IMG/VR virus record: IMGVR_UViG_3300035698_017562
Coordinates: 1-23,173 of that record
DNA from: a virus
DNA length: 23,173 nucleotides
Direction: 5' to 3' (one strand)
This document shows positions 9,481-23,173 of the stretch, in pieces. Every line of letters begins with the position of its first letter. Position 1 is the first letter of the stretch. Both the position numbers and the translations under genes were made by a program. The notes under the pieces were generated by a model. That model did no database searches. It was given only the letters and a program-made list of their open reading frames with translations, and had not been told where the DNA came from.

Positions 9481-9768
9481 CTATTTCTTTCCAGCTTTTT
9501 TGAGTGACCCAGAGACGGCACCACTCATAGCTTTTTTATACTTCATATACTGGTCCATTCTTTTTATTAGTACATGATATTTCATATTATCTATCACTTC
9601 AGGAGAATATTTTAATTTATACTCCAAAAAGAATCGTCCCTCTTGAACGGCTTCGTAACTCGCCATCGGAACTAGTGTCCAGAGGAATAAATTCATATGG
9701 ATCAAATTCTCGTTGAAGTAACCTCCCTTCAGTTTTCCCACAGAATTCACATTCGAACTCTCTCTCAT
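9481..9768 (-). CDS. Small tail-assembly protein overlapping the upstream gene out of frame
   Basis: The open frame allows 95 residues from ATG 9768, but that part would lie under the zinc-binding end of the upstream gene. ATG 9696 and ATG 9666 (the latter giving MASYEAVQEGRFFLEYKLKY) are more likely starts, though none has a good ribosome-binding site. The unique part is helical and basic (YHVLIKRMDQYMKYKKAMSG, ending SGSLKKAGKK). It overlaps the upstream 389-residue gene by up to 152 bases in the +1 frame and ends 9 bases before the tape measure gene. This is the position where many phages encode tail assembly chaperones made by ribosomal frameshifting. Independent initiation and a +1 (or -2) fusion are both possible. 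Confidence 0.6.
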   Translation of the reverse strand: MRESSNVNSVGKLKGGYFNENLIHMNLFLWTLVPMASYEAVQEGRFFLEYKLKYSPEVIDNMKYHVLIKRMDQYMKYKKAMSGAVSGSLKKAGKK

Positions 9769-10786
9769 CCTGAATACCGAAGTTTATATATTGTAATAGT
9801 TCATTGAACTCCAAAGTCTCTTTTCTTTTAATTTTTTTATAGAGTTCTATTTTCTCTTTGTTATCTGTAATTTCTTTATCATTGAATCCCACCACACAAA
9901 GTGCTTTAGTAGTACTAATAATATCTTTCAATTTTCTAGTCTGAATTTCTCTCATTTCTTTTTCTTTTTCTATTTCCAGTTCAGCTTTTTTAATTCCATG
10001 AGTTTTTTTCATTTCTATTTTCTTAATATCTACTGCATATTTACTATCAACAAGCTTTTGAGCTACAATAATATCCTTCATTCTGGTAAATCTAAATTTA
10101 AATTTATCTTCTCCTACCATTTGAGTAATAGGTTCTTCTATTTTTATTTTGCTTAATTCTGTATCTTTATTATAATCTACAGCATTTATTACTTCTTCTT
10201 CACTATATTTTAATTCGAGATATTTTTGAAAATCAGCTTCTGTAATTTCATCTAAATAAGGTTTAAAAAATTCTCTTAATCTCTCATCTGCTTCTAATAT
10301 AGATACATAATTCATTTCTCTTAAATCTAATTTAAAGCTTTGAGGAGTTTTATTACTCTCATCTGCTTGGCAATCACATAACCATCTATGTTCATGTGTA
10401 GGAGTATTAAATTTTATCTTAATACCAACCATAGCTTCTATAAATTCTTGTGGTAACATATCTCCTATATTGTATTGATCTTTTTCCTTCATAAGATCTT
10501 GCATAATTGTTAAAAGATTTTCTACAAAATTCTCTTCATTTGACATAGTGATATCTAATACTTGTTGTCCGGTATAGTCATCAAAATGTAAGGTTCTGGG
10601 CATATCAAATCTACCTAATGTTTCAAAATTTATTTTTACAAGACCTGCTGTATTAACAAATTTATCTCCTTCTTCTTTTGTTTCTACAATTTCTTCTTCA
10701 TCATCATTATGATCTACCATAACCTGTCTTCTTACTCTTCTTTCTGCTACATCTTCTGGACTTAAAAGTTTTGTTTCCTTTGTCAT
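9617..10786 (-). CDS. Zinc-binding baseplate-hub / tail assembly protein (T4_baseplate-like)
   Basis: This 389-residue protein lies between the second tube-like gene and the tape measure. An acidic N-terminus (about 25-45) precedes a beta-helical domain with MPRTLHFDDYTGQQVLDITM, NEENFVENLLTIM and LPQEFIEAMVG (62-121), which recalls T4 gp26/gp51-type hub assembly proteins. HEHRWLCDCQ (131-140, Cys137 and Cys139) and ECEFCG (345-350, Cys346 and Cys349) could jointly bind one zinc. Between them lie KDIIVAQKLVDSKYAVDIKK and a charged helix. The family's usual ending would fit FDPYEFIPLDTSS. The last dozen residues (Arg/Ser-rich) are encoded where the other frame is also open. No promoter motif precedes it, so it probably shares the unit that starts at 11452. 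Confidence 0.6.
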   Translation of the reverse strand: MTKETKLLSPEDVAERRVRRQVMVDHNDDEEEIVETKEEGDKFVNTAGLVKINFETLGRFDMPRTLHFDDYTGQQVLDITMSNEENFVENLLTIMQDLMKEKDQYNIGDMLPQEFIEAMVGIKIKFNTPTHEHRWLCDCQADESNKTPQSFKLDLREMNYVSILEADERLREFFKPYLDEITEADFQKYLELKYSEEEVINAVDYNKDTELSKIKIEEPITQMVGEDKFKFRFTRMKDIIVAQKLVDSKYAVDIKKIEMKKTHGIKKAELEIEKEKEMREIQTRKLKDIISTTKALCVVGFNDKEITDNKEKIELYKKIKRKETLEFNELLQYINFGIQDEREFECEFCGKTEGRLLQREFDPYEFIPLDTSSDGELRSRSRGTILFGV

Positions 10787-13792: not shown

Positions 13793-14308
13793 ATGAAAAG
13801 AATTGAAAGAAAATTTATAGTAAAAAATAGTAAAGAATGTTCAATGTACACCCTACCTAATGGCAAACCAATTATAATTAACTCTTCCTCTTGTAGAAAT
13901 TGTAATTACGATAAATCAATATTTGGCTATTATTTTTGTATAAAAAACAAAAATATAGATGATGTGGAAATAACAGAAGAAGAATTTAACGAAATAAAAG
14001 AAAAAGCAGAGGAATCTATCAAAGAAAAAGAATTACATACTTTAAATGATTGTGAAGATTATGTTGATATTGTTAAAATAATAGAAGATTATAAAAATAA
14101 ACTTAATCTTTGTGATGAAGATTTTTATTTTGACATTAGTTGTGATTCTTGTGAATTATGTTGTTCCATAAAATTTAATGAACAAGAACAAGAATCATAT
14201 ATTAAAAGAGAAATTCTCTTCCTTATGTTATATAAAAAAACCAATCAAGAAAGAGAAATTGAAAAAAATAAAGAAGAATTATCATTATATAAGAAACTCA
14301 AATTTTAA
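13793..14308 (+). CDS. Unknown Cys-rich protein, first gene of the plus-strand island
   Basis: This 171-residue protein has an ideal AAGGAG ribosome-binding site 7 bases before the ATG. Cys pairs are visible in SSSCRNCNYDKSIFGYYFCI (about 31-50) and in ISCDSCELCCSIKF (about 118-131), which suggests metal binding. The rest is charged and helical (EEEFNEIKEKAEESIKEKEL, NQEREIEKNKEELSLYKKLK). I do not recognise the family. The coding frame seems to continue past the stop after a -1 shift (see 14293-14457), so the natural protein may be longer. No transmembrane segment is visible. Placement at the head of a divergently transcribed island suggests expression at a different time from the late genes. 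An early host-takeover role is possible but unproven. Confidence 0.7.
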   Translation: MKRIERKFIVKNSKECSMYTLPNGKPIIINSSSCRNCNYDKSIFGYYFCIKNKNIDDVEITEEEFNEIKEKAEESIKEKELHTLNDCEDYVDIVKIIEDYKNKLNLCDEDFYFDISCDSCELCCSIKFNEQEQESYIKREILFLMLYKKTNQEREIEKNKEELSLYKKLKF

Positions 14309-14457
14309 AGAAAGTAAAGTATAAATATGAAGATGGTAGAGGTGAATATTTTCCTAGATCTTCTGAAGAAGAATTTTGTGATTGTATTAAAGAAGAATGT
14401 GTAGCTTATGATCCAGATTCCACAAGATCGCCTTGTAAAAATATAGTAAATTATTGA
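14293..14457 (+). pseudogene. Orphan coding stretch, probable frameshifted extension of the preceding gene
   Basis: This open frame has strong coding character (YEDGRGEYFPRSSEEEFCDC, IKEECVAYDPDSTRSPCKN) but no ATG, GTG or TTG start with a ribosome-binding site. It overlaps the end of the 171-residue gene in the -1 frame. Adding one A to the AAA at 14300-14302 would join the two (…YKKLKILKKVKY…). The Cys residues continue the Cys-rich theme. It ends with TGA 14455-14457, just before the next gene's ribosome-binding site. Confidence 0.5.
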
Positions 14458-14471
14458 GAAGGAGAAAGAAG

Positions 14472-14705
14472 ATGAAATATGTAACGTGTAGTACATGTGG
14501 AAAGCAAGTTAGTAATGAAGTTGAACAGGTTTTAACAGTAACTGTCTTTATTGAATGTCCTGAATGTATTGAAAAACAGTCAAAAATTATTAAAAAGGAT
14601 AAATTATGTGGGGTTTTAAAAGAGCATCGAGAATTATATGCTATAAGAAAAGATGATGAACAATATTTAAATTTAATTAGCAAAATTAAAAGTATTATTG
14701 AATAA
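14472..14705 (+). CDS. Small zinc-finger protein (CxxC…CxxC)
   Basis: The ATG at 14472 is chosen because AAGGAG lies 7 bases upstream. An in-frame ATG at 14454 has no such site. The 77-residue product begins MKYVTCSTCGKQVSN and carries ECPECIEKQ about 24 residues later. The two Cys pairs would bind one zinc in a ribbon or knuckle. The C-terminal half is a charged helix (KEHRELYAIRKDDEQYLNLI). I do not recognise a specific family. It is one of at least four small Cys4 proteins in this island. Binding to nucleic acid or to a host protein are both possible. Confidence 0.7.
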   Translation: MKYVTCSTCGKQVSNEVEQVLTVTVFIECPECIEKQSKIIKKDKLCGVLKEHRELYAIRKDDEQYLNLISKIKSIIE

Positions 14706-14706
14706 A

Positions 14707-14735
14707 TTGTTAAAGATTTCCATATACTATATATT
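14707..14735 (+). promoter_or_regulatory. Plus-strand promoter-like site with TTAAAGATTTCCATATA
   Basis: TTGTTA (14707-14712), 17 bases, then TATATT (14730-14735) resembles a sigma70 promoter. The stretch TTAAAG-N-TTTCCATATA recurs at 16315-16331 upstream of another island gene. About 70 bases of leader separate it from ATG 14808. Confidence 0.45.
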
Positions 14736-14807
14736 CTATTCTTCTTTGTAGTGTTCTTATCATCTGGTGTATTATGGTTTGTGTTTGTATTTTTATGGGG
14801 GTTTAAC

Positions 14808-15038
14808 ATGAAACACACAATAAGTATAGAAGACTTTGAAGATTGTAAATATAATTACAGAATAGCAGGGAGTCATTGTTCTAAACAAGGTATAAACAAA
14901 TCTCTTGATAGAATAACAGAAATTGATAAAAATACTATGAAAGAAGTTATAAGATATGTTGTATACAATCAAAGAGAACTTGTTTTTGCAACACCTAACC
15001 TTATAGATGCAATAAATTTTTATAATGGGTGTGATTGA
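14808..15038 (+). CDS. Unknown small protein
   Basis: The start is set at ATG 14808, which follows GGGGG with 7-base spacing. The longer frame from 14751 (GTG) would add a hydrophobic stretch without a ribosome-binding site and overlaps the probable leader. The 76-residue protein begins MKHTISIEDFEDCKYNYRIA and has two Cys residues (DCK, SHCSK), a helix (ITEIDKNTMKEVIRYVVY) and NLIDAINFYNGCD at the end. No family is recognised. It ends with TGA, overlapping the next start region (TGATATG). This is the only full-length gene in the window that ends with TGA. Confidence 0.65.
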   Translation: MKHTISIEDFEDCKYNYRIAGSHCSKQGINKSLDRITEIDKNTMKEVIRYVVYNQRELVFATPNLIDAINFYNGCD

Positions 15039-15039
15039 T

Positions 15040-15225
15040 ATGAAAAAAACTAAAACAAATTGGGTAGCAAAATCTTATACTGCTAATGTATTTTGTCCCC
15101 ACTGTCACTATCTAATGACAGAATATCATCTTAAAGATATAAGAATAGAGAATGGAGAAGAATTTAAAGGTCAGATAGTGTGTTTAAATTGTAGAAAATT
15201 TTTTGAATTAGAAATAAAAAAATAA
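15040..15225 (+). CDS. Small zinc-ribbon protein
   Basis: ATG 15040 overlaps the preceding TGA by one spaced base (TGATATG), so translation is probably coupled. An in-frame ATG at 15025 lacks a ribosome-binding site. The 61-residue protein has NVFCPHCHYLMTEYHL and, 30 residues on, IVCLNCRKFFELEIKK. This CxxC…CxxC arrangement with beta-type spacing is a typical zinc ribbon. Such short phage proteins may bind nucleic acid or a polymerase, but nothing here shows which. Confidence 0.7.
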   Translation: MKKTKTNWVAKSYTANVFCPHCHYLMTEYHLKDIRIENGEEFKGQIVCLNCRKFFELEIKK

Positions 15226-15235
15226 GGAGATTATA

Positions 15236-15496
15236 ATGAAAATATCGTGCTGGGAAATAAAGTATGTGGGATTTAGCAGGAAAGAACAAAACCTTAATTG
15301 GAAAAAAGAAGCACTGGCAGGAAACAGAGTCCCTGTTATAAAAGCTTATCGTGCACAGCATTCAGCCATTAAAGTATGTAGTATGTTAAAAGCTAAAATA
15401 GCAGTAGATAACTACATGATAAAAAATGGTATTTCTTTATATCTAGGATATGAAGGAAGTGGAAAACGATCAAAAGAATTTTTAAAATTAAAATAA
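15236..15496 (+). CDS. Unknown 86-residue protein, possible L7/L12-C-terminal-like helix
   Basis: AAGGAG stands 7 bases before ATG 15236. The protein begins MKISCWEIKYVGFSRKEQNL. Residues about 28-63 (NRVPVIKAYRAQHSAIKVCS, then MLKAKIAVDNYMIKNG) recall the 'k...IK.yR...g..LKeAK..Vd.y' pattern of the ribosomal L7/L12 C-terminal domain, which some phage small proteins carry. The match is partial: the Gly-Leu-Lys-Glu-Ala-Lys core reads differently here. The C-terminus is basic (GSGKRSKEFLKLK), and there are no membrane segments. I would treat it as unknown with that weak hint. Confidence 0.65.
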   Translation: MKISCWEIKYVGFSRKEQNLNWKKEALAGNRVPVIKAYRAQHSAIKVCSMLKAKIAVDNYMIKNGISLYLGYEGSGKRSKEFLKLK

Positions 15497-15517
15497 ATTA
15501 AAATAAGGAGATTAAAG

Positions 15518-15951
15518 ATGAAAACACTAACAATTAAAAAAATAATGAGTTTTGATCCTTGCTACTCTGAAACAGAGCTAAAACAATTATGGGAAACACA
15601 GGGATTTAAAAAACAGCAACTGTTTTAGAAATAGCAGAATCAAACCATAACCCAAATGATTTATTATGGTTGTTATTAAGACCAGAAATTATTCCAGAAA
15701 TAAAACTTCATTTACTTGCTGTTCTATTTGATGAAACCGCTTTAAAAGCAGAAAGAAAAGCAGGAAGAGAACCACATCCTGATAGTTGGAAAGCATTAAA
15801 AATCAAAAAACAATGGCTGAAAAACAAAGCAACAGATGAAGAATTAGCTGCTGCTTGGTCTGCTGCTTGGTCTGCTGTTGAAAAAAAACAATTAAAACAA
15901 GTTATCAAAGTATTAAGAATACAAAAAGATAAAAGAACTAATAAGGAATAA
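15518..15951 (+). pseudogene. Imm5-like 'putative immunity protein', split by a frameshift
   Basis: ATG 15518 (AAGGAG upstream) opens a 36-residue frame ending at TAG 15628. The -1 frame then continues without a start: TATVLEIAESNHNPNDLLWL, later EPHPDSWKALKIKKQWLKNK and ATDEELAAAWSAAWSAVEKK, to TAA 15951. Joining the parts at the six A residues 15608-15613 (seven would restore frame) gives about 144 residues. The order 'l…Wall…fA…p….A…ATdEELaAAwsAAwsA' is that of the Imm5-type proteins often called putative immunity protein in phages. A nominal start at ATG 15670 inside the second part has no good ribosome-binding site. A true mutation, slippage on the A-run and a sequencing error are all open. 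Confidence 0.6.
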
Positions 15952-16015
15952 AAAGAAAGTTTGTATAAAATGTAAGAAAGAATTATTATTTGCTAATTTA
16001 TTGCCTATTATTTAA
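15917..16015 (+). pseudogene. Remnant of a zinc-finger paralogue
   Basis: A 32-codon open stretch follows a stop and overlaps the end of the Imm5-like gene in another frame. It reads EYKKIKELIRNKKKVCIKCK then KELLFANLLPII. This closely matches the C-terminus of the intact gene at 16388-16576 (KKIKEILKEKKKLCIDCKKE, then MLFANILSIV). It has no start codon, no ribosome-binding site and only the second Cys pair, so it looks like the 3' end of a deleted copy. Confidence 0.7.
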
Positions 16016-16079
16016 CTTTAATTAACATGATTAAGGAAATAGTAGAATAAATTGTTAATGTATTTAAAGGAGAAATGAG

Positions 16080-16310
16080 ATGATAAGTAGTTATAATGAA
16101 GATAAAAAGTGTTTAGTCTGTAATACTTGGTTTAATGGTTTTGGAGATACTTGTACTATTTGTAAATATAAAAAAATTGTAAATGAAATTATTCTTGATT
16201 TAAGTGATCGTAGAGGGTTAGGAAATGAATGGGATCAAATAGATGAGGATATTCAAGAAGAAATTAAAGAAACTTGGGTTGGTATAATAAAATACAATTT
16301 AATAAAATAA
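16080..16310 (+). CDS. Small zinc-finger protein
   Basis: AAGGAG (16067-16072) lies 7 bases before ATG 16080. The 76-residue protein has KKCLVCNTWFNGFGDTCTIC at about 9-28, two Cys pairs 12 residues apart, which is a compact zinc finger. An acidic helical C-terminus follows (DLSDRRGLGNEWDQIDEDIQ, EEIKETWVGIIKYN). No family is recognised. The acidic tail plus Cys4 head suggests protein binding as much as DNA binding. Confidence 0.7.
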   Translation: MISSYNEDKKCLVCNTWFNGFGDTCTICKYKKIVNEIILDLSDRRGLGNEWDQIDEDIQEEIKETWVGIIKYNLIK

Positions 16311-16314
16311 AATA

Positions 16315-16351
16315 TTAAAGGTTTCCATATAAAATACAGATAGTATAAATA
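16315..16351 (+). promoter_or_regulatory. Plus-strand promoter-like site with TTAAAGGTTTCCATATA
   Basis: TTTCCA (16322-16327), 16 bases, TATAAA (16344-16349). The 17-base stretch at 16315-16331 differs by one base from that at 14710-14726. It precedes the last island gene by 36 bases. Confidence 0.45.
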
Positions 16352-16387
16352 TAGAGAGTGAAAATGAAATCAACTGGAGGTTTCATT

Positions 16388-16576
16388 ATGAAAAACAAAA
16401 AATGTTGTGTATGTGGTATTAAAGTAAAGAGAGATAATAATGGATTATTTTTACAAGAAACTTTTTTCACATTAGATGAAGATAAAAAAATAAAGGAGAT
16501 TTTAAAAGAAAAAAAGAAATTATGTATTGATTGTAAAAAAGAAATGCTATTTGCTAACATTCTATCAATTGTTTAA
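16388..16576 (+). CDS. Small zinc-finger protein, last gene of the island
   Basis: GGAGG (16376-16380) is 7 bases before ATG 16388, which fixes the start. The GTG and ATG 10 and 8 codons upstream (16358, 16364) are not needed. The 62-residue protein has KKCCVCGIKVKRD near the N-terminus and KKLCIDCKKEMLFANILSIV at the end. The two Cys pairs lie about 35 residues apart, with a charged helix between (TLDEDKKIKEILKEKKK). The C-terminal third is repeated as a remnant at 15917-16015. A convergent terminator follows within 20 bases. Confidence 0.75.
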   Translation: MKNKKCCVCGIKVKRDNNGLFLQETFFTLDEDKKIKEILKEKKKLCIDCKKEMLFANILSIV

Positions 16577-16595: not shown

Positions 16596-16631
16596 CCTAT
16601 AGAAAATTAATTCTATAGGTTTCTTTTTTTA
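16596..16631. terminator. Bidirectional terminator between convergent genes
   Basis: CCTATAGAA (16596-16604) and TTCTATAGG (16611-16619) form a perfect 9-bp stem with a six-base AATTAA loop. On the plus strand TTTC and seven T residues follow. On the minus strand the stem is followed by CTTTT. The minus-strand nuclease gene ends inside it, its last codon and TAG lying in the stem. Confidence 0.85.
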
Positions 16632-16915
16632 AATCTTTCTATAATTTCTTCTAATTCTTTATTTTCTATAATACCCTCAAACCATTCTTTTTGTCCTTTT
16701 ACTAAACAAGACTTATACCATAATTTTTTTAATTCATTCTGTACATAAATATCAAAATTTTTATTAGGAACTTCCCAATAACCAGATACTTTTATATCTG
16801 GATTATGAGAGATATATTGTCTTATTCTTTTCCTTGGATTTTGTTGACTTGTATACCCTATTTTAAATAAGATATTTTCTTTATTACGTACTAAATATAA
16901 ATAATGTTTCTTCAT
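16613..16915 (-). CDS. GIY-YIG superfamily nuclease, T5orf172-like
   Basis: This 100-residue protein starts KHYLYLVRNKENILFKIGYT, then NPRKRIRQYI. The 'lYlv….KIG.T….R…..' core is that of T5orf172/Mug113-type GIY-YIG domains, with the second strand KIGYT in place of YIG. The C-terminal QKEWFEG (75-81) carries the acidic residue expected in the active site. It is a single domain with no DNA-binding extension, so it is shorter than homing nucleases such as I-TevI. The ATG at 16915 has no ribosome-binding site and directly follows a copy of the late-promoter-like motif. It lies at the edge of the plus-strand island, which suggests a mobile or island-associated gene. Confidence 0.75.
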   Translation of the reverse strand: MKKHYLYLVRNKENILFKIGYTSQQNPRKRIRQYISHNPDIKVSGYWEVPNKNFDIYVQNELKKLWYKSCLVKGQKEWFEGIIENKELEEIIERFKKRNL

Positions 16916-21429: not shown

Positions 21430-23173
21430 TTAGAAAGTACTTCTTATACCAGAAAGAGCATTTTCAAGGTTTTTTGAAGGTAATTGTATGTTCTCCACAA
21501 CATTATATCTACTATCCTCATCTTCATATATAGTAATTGGAATAATATCACTATTTGACATATCATATACTACTCCGGCAACACTATCTGAACAATCTTT
21601 ATCATTAATACCTGCTTGAGATTCATCCCAATTACCAAAATATTTATGTTCAGTTGATCCTTTTATATGATCTATTTTTTCTTTACCTTTACTATTTGTT
21701 TCTAATATAAGACTTAAAAGATTATTCTTTAAAAATATATTCTTACCTACTTTTATAGTCTCATCAAACAAGCAGTTTACAAGAAATAGATAAGGATCAA
21801 TTGTTCTATCAACAGATAATACAGAAGCTTCTATACCATTTCTTAATAACGCCTGTTTAAATTGAGCATTTTGAAATGTATCTGATGTAAAATATTTTAT
21901 AAAGACATTTCCTTCATACTTTAAATCTGATATAAAATGTTCAATTGCAGCTAAATTTATACCTGCTTTACCAGGACCTATACAAAAAGCAAAATCTAAT
22001 ACATATATAGTCTTTTCTAATACTTTACTTCTCTCTTTATGACCCATAGAAATACCTACTAAATCTCCATGAGCACTCATAGCGGGATCTACATGAACCC
22101 ATTTTGGTTCTCTAGCAGCTCTTTTTATCTTATATTTACCCTCAATTGTTTTTATAAAGAATTTAGTTTTTATCATATTCCATAATATCTTTTCCGGATT
22201 TTCCATAGAATCTGCTGTAATAACACCTTCAATATTTGTTAAATTTTCATTATTAAATAAATTTTCTATTAATACATAATCTTGTATAAGTCTATTCTCT
22301 CTCTGTGTAGGAAGACCTGCTATATCCTTGATAGATTTGATTATATTCTTTTCAAATTCAAGTTTAACGTCAATAGGTACATCAATAAGGAGACTCTTAT
22401 TTATATCCTTTAATTGATTATCATTTGTTATTATTTGAGGTGGGGTAACTCCATCTCCTGTACATACTTTAAACGTTTCTCCTGTTTCTACCCACTTAGG
22501 AAACAAATATGGTCTAGCATTCCATCTACTTCTACTTCTAAAATATACTCTTTCTTGTTTCTGTAATTCATTTAAAATATATTTCTCAATTGGATTCTCT
22601 ATATCATTAGCAGAAGAATCTAAATATACCATACCTAAATAATTTCCACCTACAGTAGCTTTAATACGATCAAGTCCATCTGTATATAGTTGAAAAATAT
22701 CTGCATGAGAAACTCCTGCTTGTTGAATAAAGAAGTTAATTTCAGATACTGAAAGGAATAATAAATCTGCTCCTATAAAATCTAAAAAAGCGACTCCTAT
22801 ATTTAATGATAATCTAGACTCTAAAGTAAGTTTACCAAACGTAGCTGCTTTGGACCAAATTATTGTGTCTAACCCCTCCTCATGTTGCTTTATCGCTACT
22901 TGATCTTGTCTATCTACTCTTTTAAATCTGGGACTCATCATAAGCATATCATATATAGGTTTAAGTAAAAGTTGATTAACTTTCTCCGCCACAAAAGACA
23001 TAATATATATAGATAGATTGGTTGTAGGGGCTAAACCATAATATAACTGAGGGTGTCTTAAACAATGTACAAATATAATAATATAATGTATTAACATTCT
23101 ATTTAAAAAACTTTTACCTGTATTATGTGTTACGGTAAAATCTTCTAATAAATATCTTTGATTACCATCTAGA
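21430..23173 (-). CDS. Terminase large subunit, 5' end outside window, with a probable intein C-terminus at its start
   Basis: The frame is open from the window edge (23173) to TAA 21430. The first Met at 23097 is internal. TGKSFLNRM at 23121-23095 is the end of the ATP-binding Walker A loop. GADLLFLSVSEINFF (109-123, counting from Met 23097) is a Walker-B-like strand with Glu119, and VYLDSSAND (157-165) is the coupling motif. In the nuclease half, WVHVDPAMS gives Asp337, FTSDTF gives Asp406 and KDCSDSVAGVVYD gives Asp501/Asp504, the acidic cluster of the RNase-H-like fold. It cuts and pumps DNA into the capsid. No Walker A glycine stands before THN-TGKS; instead YLLEDFTVTHN resembles an intein end. 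The gene family is certain, and the intein is strongly suggested. Confidence 0.9.
   Translation of the reverse strand, partial: LDGNQRYLLEDFTVTHNTGKSFLNRMLIHYIIIFVHCLRHPQLYYGLAPTTNLSIYIMSFVAEKVNQLLLKPIYDMLMMSPRFKRVDRQDQVAIKQHEEGLDTIIWSKAATFGKLTLESRLSLNIGVAFLDFIGADLLFLSVSEINFFIQQAGVSHADIFQLYTDGLDRIKATVGGNYLGMVYLDSSANDIENPIEKYILNELQKQERVYFRSRSRWNARPYLFPKWVETGETFKVCTGDGVTPPQIITNDNQLKDINKSLLIDVPIDVKLEFEKNIIKSIKDIAGLPTQRENRLIQDYVLIENLFNNENLTNIEGVITADSMENPEKILWNMIKTKFFIKTIEGKYKIKRAAREPKWVHVDPAMSAHGDLVGISMGHKERSKVLEKTIYVLDFAFCIGPGKAGINLAAIEHFISDLKYEGNVFIKYFTSDTFQNAQFKQALLRNGIEASVLSVDRTIDPYLFLVNCLFDETIKVGKNIFLKNNLLSLILETNSKGKEKIDHIKGSTEHKYFGNWDESQAGINDKDCSDSVAGVVYDMSNSDIIPITIYEDEDSRYNVVENIQLPSKNLENALSGIRSTF
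23122..23173 (-). other. Probable C-terminal end of an intein inserted in the terminase ATP-binding loop
   Basis: The visible residues LDGNQRYLLEDFTVTHN end in His-Asn, and the next residue is Thr (23121-23119) followed by GKS. Inteins end in HN and splice before Ser, Thr or Cys, and the P-loop of phage terminases and helicases is a known insertion point. 'yL.eDF.VTHN' also resembles the block F-G end of many phage inteins. Only 17 residues lie in the window, so the N-terminal splicing block and any homing domain cannot be seen. Confidence 0.75.

What the first reader, a model, noticed from the sequence alone, without database searches (positions are those of the whole stretch)
23107..23173. 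Terminase ATP-binding loop appears to hold an intein
The frame is open to the edge, but the residue five positions before the GKS glycine is Val, so VTHNTGKS is not a working Walker A by itself. Removing everything up to HN leaves TGKS as the second half of a loop, which is what a spliced terminase needs. His-Asn followed by Thr is the intein-extein junction signature. Interrupting the packaging motor's catalytic loop fits the known preference of inteins for essential sites.
Basis: partly seen in the sequence, partly recalled or inferred. Interest (0 to 1): 0.75.

Follow-up and report, generated by a model that had tools for sequence, protein, structure and literature searches.

The report
Truncated intein in phage packaging ATPase

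Summary
The minus-strand frame 23172..21430 is a TerL (DNA-packaging ATPase/nuclease) whose 5' end is cut off by the end of the record. Seven aligned homologues read G-x-[IA]-G-x-[GA]-K-[ST]-like Walker A motifs; the window reads V-T-H-N-T-G-K-S there, preceded by LDGNQRYLLEDF. A profile made from 28 intein C-terminal blocks in other viral contigs picks out this frame alone in the window (E = 2e-13; next best 0.2). The 11 residues before FTVTHN, not used to choose the training set, score as high as genuine inteins; no non-intein stretch among 379,163 matches them. All ten such relatives scanned carry a Hint domain, nine also a LAGLIDADG endonuclease. In the same TerL family, five other contigs have complete inteins in this P-loop, two at exactly this site, and each rejoins to a perfect Walker A on paper. 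So the record ends about 17 codons inside an intein, probably 300-400 residues long. Its N-terminal half, first catalytic residue and any endonuclease lie outside the record and could not be read. P-loop inteins in phage TerL are published, so this is a new member of a known kind. Interest is low.

The parts
23122..23172 (-). C-terminal 17 residues of an intein (LDGNQRYLLEDFTVTHN): end of the C-terminal splicing region, penultimate His and terminal Asn. The rest of the intein lies outside the record.
   Evidence: Profile match E = 2.2e-13; 11 unselected upstream residues score 26.4 bits, within the range of true inteins
23110..23121 (-). Second half of the TerL Walker A (T-G-K-S) at the start of the C-extein; Thr is the +1 residue
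   Evidence: Aligns with x-G-K-[ST] of G-x-I-G-x-[GA]-K-[ST] in seven homologues
21430..23121 (-). C-extein: rest of the terminase large subunit (563 aa plus stop), ATPase and nuclease domains
   Evidence: tblastn to 205 phage records; PHROG 17415 terminase large subunit, E = 0.0017; alignment A1

Best explanation
The right end of the record lies inside an intein inserted in the Walker A loop of a myovirus terminase large subunit, between the fourth and fifth residues of the loop (G-x-I-G | T-G-K-S). The precursor would be translated as one chain. The intein would cut itself out by standard protein splicing: acyl shift at its first Cys/Ser, transfer to the +1 Thr, cyclisation of the terminal Asn helped by the penultimate His, then rearrangement to a peptide bond. 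This would leave G-x-I-G-T-G-K-S and so an active packaging ATPase. By analogy with its nearest C-terminal relatives it is probably about 300-400 residues long and probably carries a LAGLIDADG homing endonuclease. Shown here: the C-terminal splicing block, its position in TerL, and the loss of the first half of the Walker A. Inferred: the N-terminal block, the endonuclease and actual splicing.
For: Profile match E = 2.2e-13, next window ORF 0.2. The 11 residues upstream of FTVTHN score like true inteins and no background stretch equals them. All 23 viral contig stretches with FTVTHNTGK have it in a P-loop-like TGK context; all but one (L017, of another intein-like type) share the same upstream block, in helicases, AAA proteins, terminase-like proteins and others. 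All ten of these proteins scanned have Pfam Hom_end_hint, and nine have LAGLIDADG/Hom_end. Where the intein start was recognised in this group it follows a Gly, as G|C...HN|TGK. Five relatives in the same TerL family have complete inteins at three P-loop sites; L045 and L047 are at the same site as the window, and joining the exteins on paper gives GGIGSGKS and GSLGSGKS. Three of the five also match Pfam Intein_splicing, two of them above the curated cut-off.
Against: Only 17 intein residues are visible, and the N-terminal block is not in the record. NCBIfam finds no intein model in the window protein, but it also finds none in equally short tails of two confirmed inteins, so this is uninformative. 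The +1 residue is Thr, which is allowed but less usual than Ser or Cys (own knowledge). No close relative of this TerL was found, so no intein-free allele could be compared.
Confidence: 0.95

Rival explanations
1. The visible tail is the C-terminal piece of a split intein: N-extein plus Int-N are encoded elsewhere and the two halves trans-splice.
For: The frame is open to the edge, so a start codon a few residues further upstream cannot be excluded. Split inteins exist in phages (own knowledge).
Against: All ten relatives with the same C-terminal block that were scanned carry the Hint domain on the same open frame as the C-terminal block, and the five P-loop inteins in this TerL family are contiguous.
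Confidence: 0.03
2. A contiguous intein that no longer splices, leaving a dead terminase gene in a defective genome.
For: Splicing cannot be tested from sequence, and the first catalytic residue is not visible.
Against: Terminal His-Asn, +1 Thr and the GKS of the extein are all intact, and the TerL frame is open over 563 codons to its stop.
Confidence: 0.03
3. No intein: an ordinary TerL with an unusual N-terminus, VTHNTGKS being a degenerate Walker A.
For: VTHNTGK occurs by chance in some unrelated ORFs (L137, L139, L154).
Against: E = 2.2e-13 for the intein C-block. None of the seven aligned homologues has anything similar. The first Gly of the P-loop is missing.
Confidence: 0.005
4. Assembly chimera: a foreign intein end joined by mistake to a TerL at the contig edge.
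For: The feature lies at the very end of a metagenomic contig.
Against: The join is in frame and exactly at a site where intein-extein junctions occur in relatives (L045, L047 in TerL; HN|TGK in other P-loop proteins).
Confidence: 0.01

Closest known systems
Mycobacteriophage TerL1-a and TerL1-b inteins (PMC5050341)
   Same: Inteins in the Walker A P-loop of phage TerL. That paper shows splicing for the five of seven terminase inteins it tested, and homing endonuclease activity for two.
   Different: TerL1-a lies between the invariant Lys and Thr, with TerL1-b one residue away. The window's insertion lies before TGKS (G|TGKS), in a different set of TerL proteins. Our intein cannot be compared over its length.
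Inteins with the block YxGFxLxGxxxYLLxDFTVTHN before TGK in viral P-loop proteins (L009, L012, L020, L021, L023, L024, L025, L027, L028, L132)
   Same: Same C-terminal splicing block and same insertion point before TGK; several hosts look like terminases of other families.
   Different: Those have the whole intein (Hint, mostly with LAGLIDADG); here only 17 residues are on the record.
P-loop inteins in the same TerL family (L032, L036, L045, L047, L073)
   Same: Same host protein family; L045 and L047 have the same insertion site.
   Different: Their C-terminal blocks are of other types (VHN|S, IHN|S, HHN|S, TGN|T), so they are probably not the same intein lineage.
crAss-like phage Delta-group TerL inteins (PMC7886860)
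   Same: The authors report that TerL in that group typically contains an intein.
   Different: Different phages, Hint-Hop type in the example shown; no relation tested.

Membership tests
Intein (protein-splicing element) | C-terminal splicing block with penultimate His and terminal Asn | tested here: met
   LDGNQRYLLEDFTVTHN, E = 2.2e-13 to a profile of intein C-blocks
Intein (protein-splicing element) | +1 extein residue Ser, Thr or Cys | tested here: met
   Thr at 23121-23119
Intein (protein-splicing element) | N-terminal splicing block starting with Cys or Ser | not testable with these tools
   Lies beyond the end of the record; no overlapping contig found
Intein (protein-splicing element) | In-frame insertion at a conserved site of the host protein, absent from homologues | tested here: met
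   Replaces the first half of the Walker A; seven homologues uninterrupted. Only the downstream side is visible.
Intein (protein-splicing element) | Excision demonstrated (spliced product) | not testable with these tools
   Needs protein
LAGLIDADG homing-endonuclease intein | Endonuclease domain between the splicing blocks | not testable with these tools
   Off the record; present in 9 of 10 C-block relatives at Pfam E below 0.01
Terminase large subunit (C-extein) | Sequence homology over ATPase and nuclease domains | tested here: met

The most novel reading that the evidence does not exclude
A split intein in the Walker A of a phage packaging motor, so that an active terminase forms only when two separately encoded pieces are joined.
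Probability: 0.03. Interest if true: 0.5.

Novelty: new member of a known kind. Interest (0 to 1): 0.18.

Why it matters
It adds one more case of an intein in the catalytic loop of a phage packaging motor, in a TerL family where this survey shows repeated invasion: three P-loop sites plus a nuclease site. It also warns that gene callers would treat VTHNTGKS as the native start of this truncated protein. It does not change current views.

Tried and rejected
Exact 36-base search of the window's end in viral contigs: nothing. Relatives through the tail sheath protein: six loci, 23-26% identical; their TerL genes were not examined. NCBIfam on the window protein: no intein model, but the same is true for short tails of confirmed inteins. 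Pfam on the window protein: nothing useful. Degenerate Walker A without an intein, and chimera: rejected for the reasons given under rivals. Structure prediction was not run because the visible intein part is 17 residues.

Full report
What is in the sequence. The window is a whole linear virus record of 23,173 bases. On the minus strand a frame runs from the right-hand edge (23172) to a stop at 21432-21430, 580 codons, open at its 5' end. It begins LDGNQRYLLEDFTVTHNTGKSF. The frame belongs to a terminase large subunit: tblastn finds 205 phage records, E down to 1e-29, about 25% identical over about 90% of the query in the best ones, many annotated as terminase large subunit; PHROG 17415 (terminase large subunit) matches weakly (E = 0.0017). 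The rest of the record includes a myovirus tail module: sheath, tube, tape measure and baseplate.

The Walker A. In the alignment of the window with seven TerL homologues, all seven read G-x-I-G-x-[GA]-K-[ST]. The window reads V-T-H-N-T-G-K-S. The second half of the loop is present, and the first half is replaced by something that ends in His-Asn.

Is the replaced part an intein? A pattern search for FTVTHNTGK in 2.9 million viral contigs gave 23 stretches. All but one share a further upstream block, roughly Y(Y/F)GFxLxGxxxYLLxDFTVTHN, and all continue with TGK plus a P-loop-like context, in helicases, AAA proteins, terminase-like proteins and others. To avoid circularity, only the 11 residues before FTVTHN, which played no part in the selection, were scored. 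The window scores 26.4 bits, inside the leave-one-out range of the true cases, and the only stretches among 379,163 background positions that reach it are those inteins and the window itself. A profile HMM made from 28 members of this group (identical ones merged) finds the window's frame with E = 2.2e-13; the next of 511 window ORFs has 0.2. Ten of these proteins were scanned against Pfam: all ten have Hom_end_hint, and nine have LAGLIDADG and Hom_end domains, ending before the HN. As a caution, VTHNTGK alone is not diagnostic: in a wider search (63 stretches) some hits are plainly not inteins, such as L137 and L139.

Inteins in this TerL family. Among 80 distant TerL relatives from viral contigs, five have complete inteins in the P-loop, at three sites: after GK (L032, L036), before SGK (L045, L047; the same site as in the window) and before TGSGK (L073). 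L032 and L036 match Pfam Intein_splicing and LAGLIDADG_3 above cut-off, L047 matches Intein_splicing weakly, and L045 and L073 match nothing at E 0.01 and were recognised by their junctions and in-frame insert. Joining the extein halves on paper gives perfect Walker A motifs in every case: GAIGVGKS, GGIGVGKS, GGIGSGKS, GSLGSGKS, GSTGSGKT. Applied to the window this predicts G-x-I-G | intein | T-G-K-S.

What cannot be seen. The record stops 17 codons into the intein. No overlapping contig was found by an exact 36-base search, and no close relative by protein. The first catalytic residue, the endonuclease and the size (expected about 300-400 residues from relatives) are therefore inferred. The absence of an NCBIfam intein match means nothing, because tails of confirmed inteins of the same length also fail.

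Mechanism. Standard protein splicing is inferred, with Asn cyclisation at the visible HN and the visible Thr as +1 nucleophile. Without splicing the ATPase would lack the first half of its phosphate-binding loop, so splicing should be needed for packaging.

Novelty. Inteins in the P-loop of phage TerL are known: in mycobacteriophages TerL is the commonest intein host, TerL1-a and -b lie in the Walker A, five terminase inteins were tested and all spliced, and two were shown to cleave intein-free DNA (PMC5050341). TerL inteins are also typical of one crAss-like group (PMC7886860). The present case is a new, truncated member of that kind in another TerL family. Interest is low, confidence high.

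Noticed in passing
L063, L065, L081, L099 (TerL frames, residues about 550-960): Four TerL relatives carry an HNH-type intein not in the ATPase but at the C-terminal nuclease site, K(I/V)DHPxxG|C...HN|SKDxxDxLxG (in L065 KVDHPDGGRRG|C). In the mycobacteriophage survey, terminase inteins were reported to localise to the ATPase domain (PMC5050341). The window's TerL has no insert there.
   Followed up: partly
window 16613-16915 (-): T5orf172/GIY-YIG domain protein between the block of small plus-strand genes and the structural genes, a possible homing-type nuclease (Pfam E = 1.3e-9).
   Followed up: partly
window 9481-9768 and 9617-10786 (-): Two frames overlap by about 150 bases just upstream of the tape measure gene, the layout of a tail assembly chaperone pair; a +1 or -2 shift would join them. 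No slippery site was tested.
   Followed up: partly
window 13793-16576 (+): A block of small, partly Cys-rich plus-strand ORFs interrupts the minus-strand structural operon; the two tested have no Pfam match.
   Followed up: no
window 21433-23172 (-) against PHROG 17415 (940 columns): The window TerL's residues 13-85 match profile positions 402-474, so the family's P-loop lies unusually far from its N-terminus; the family may have been built from intein-bearing TerL sequences.
   Followed up: no
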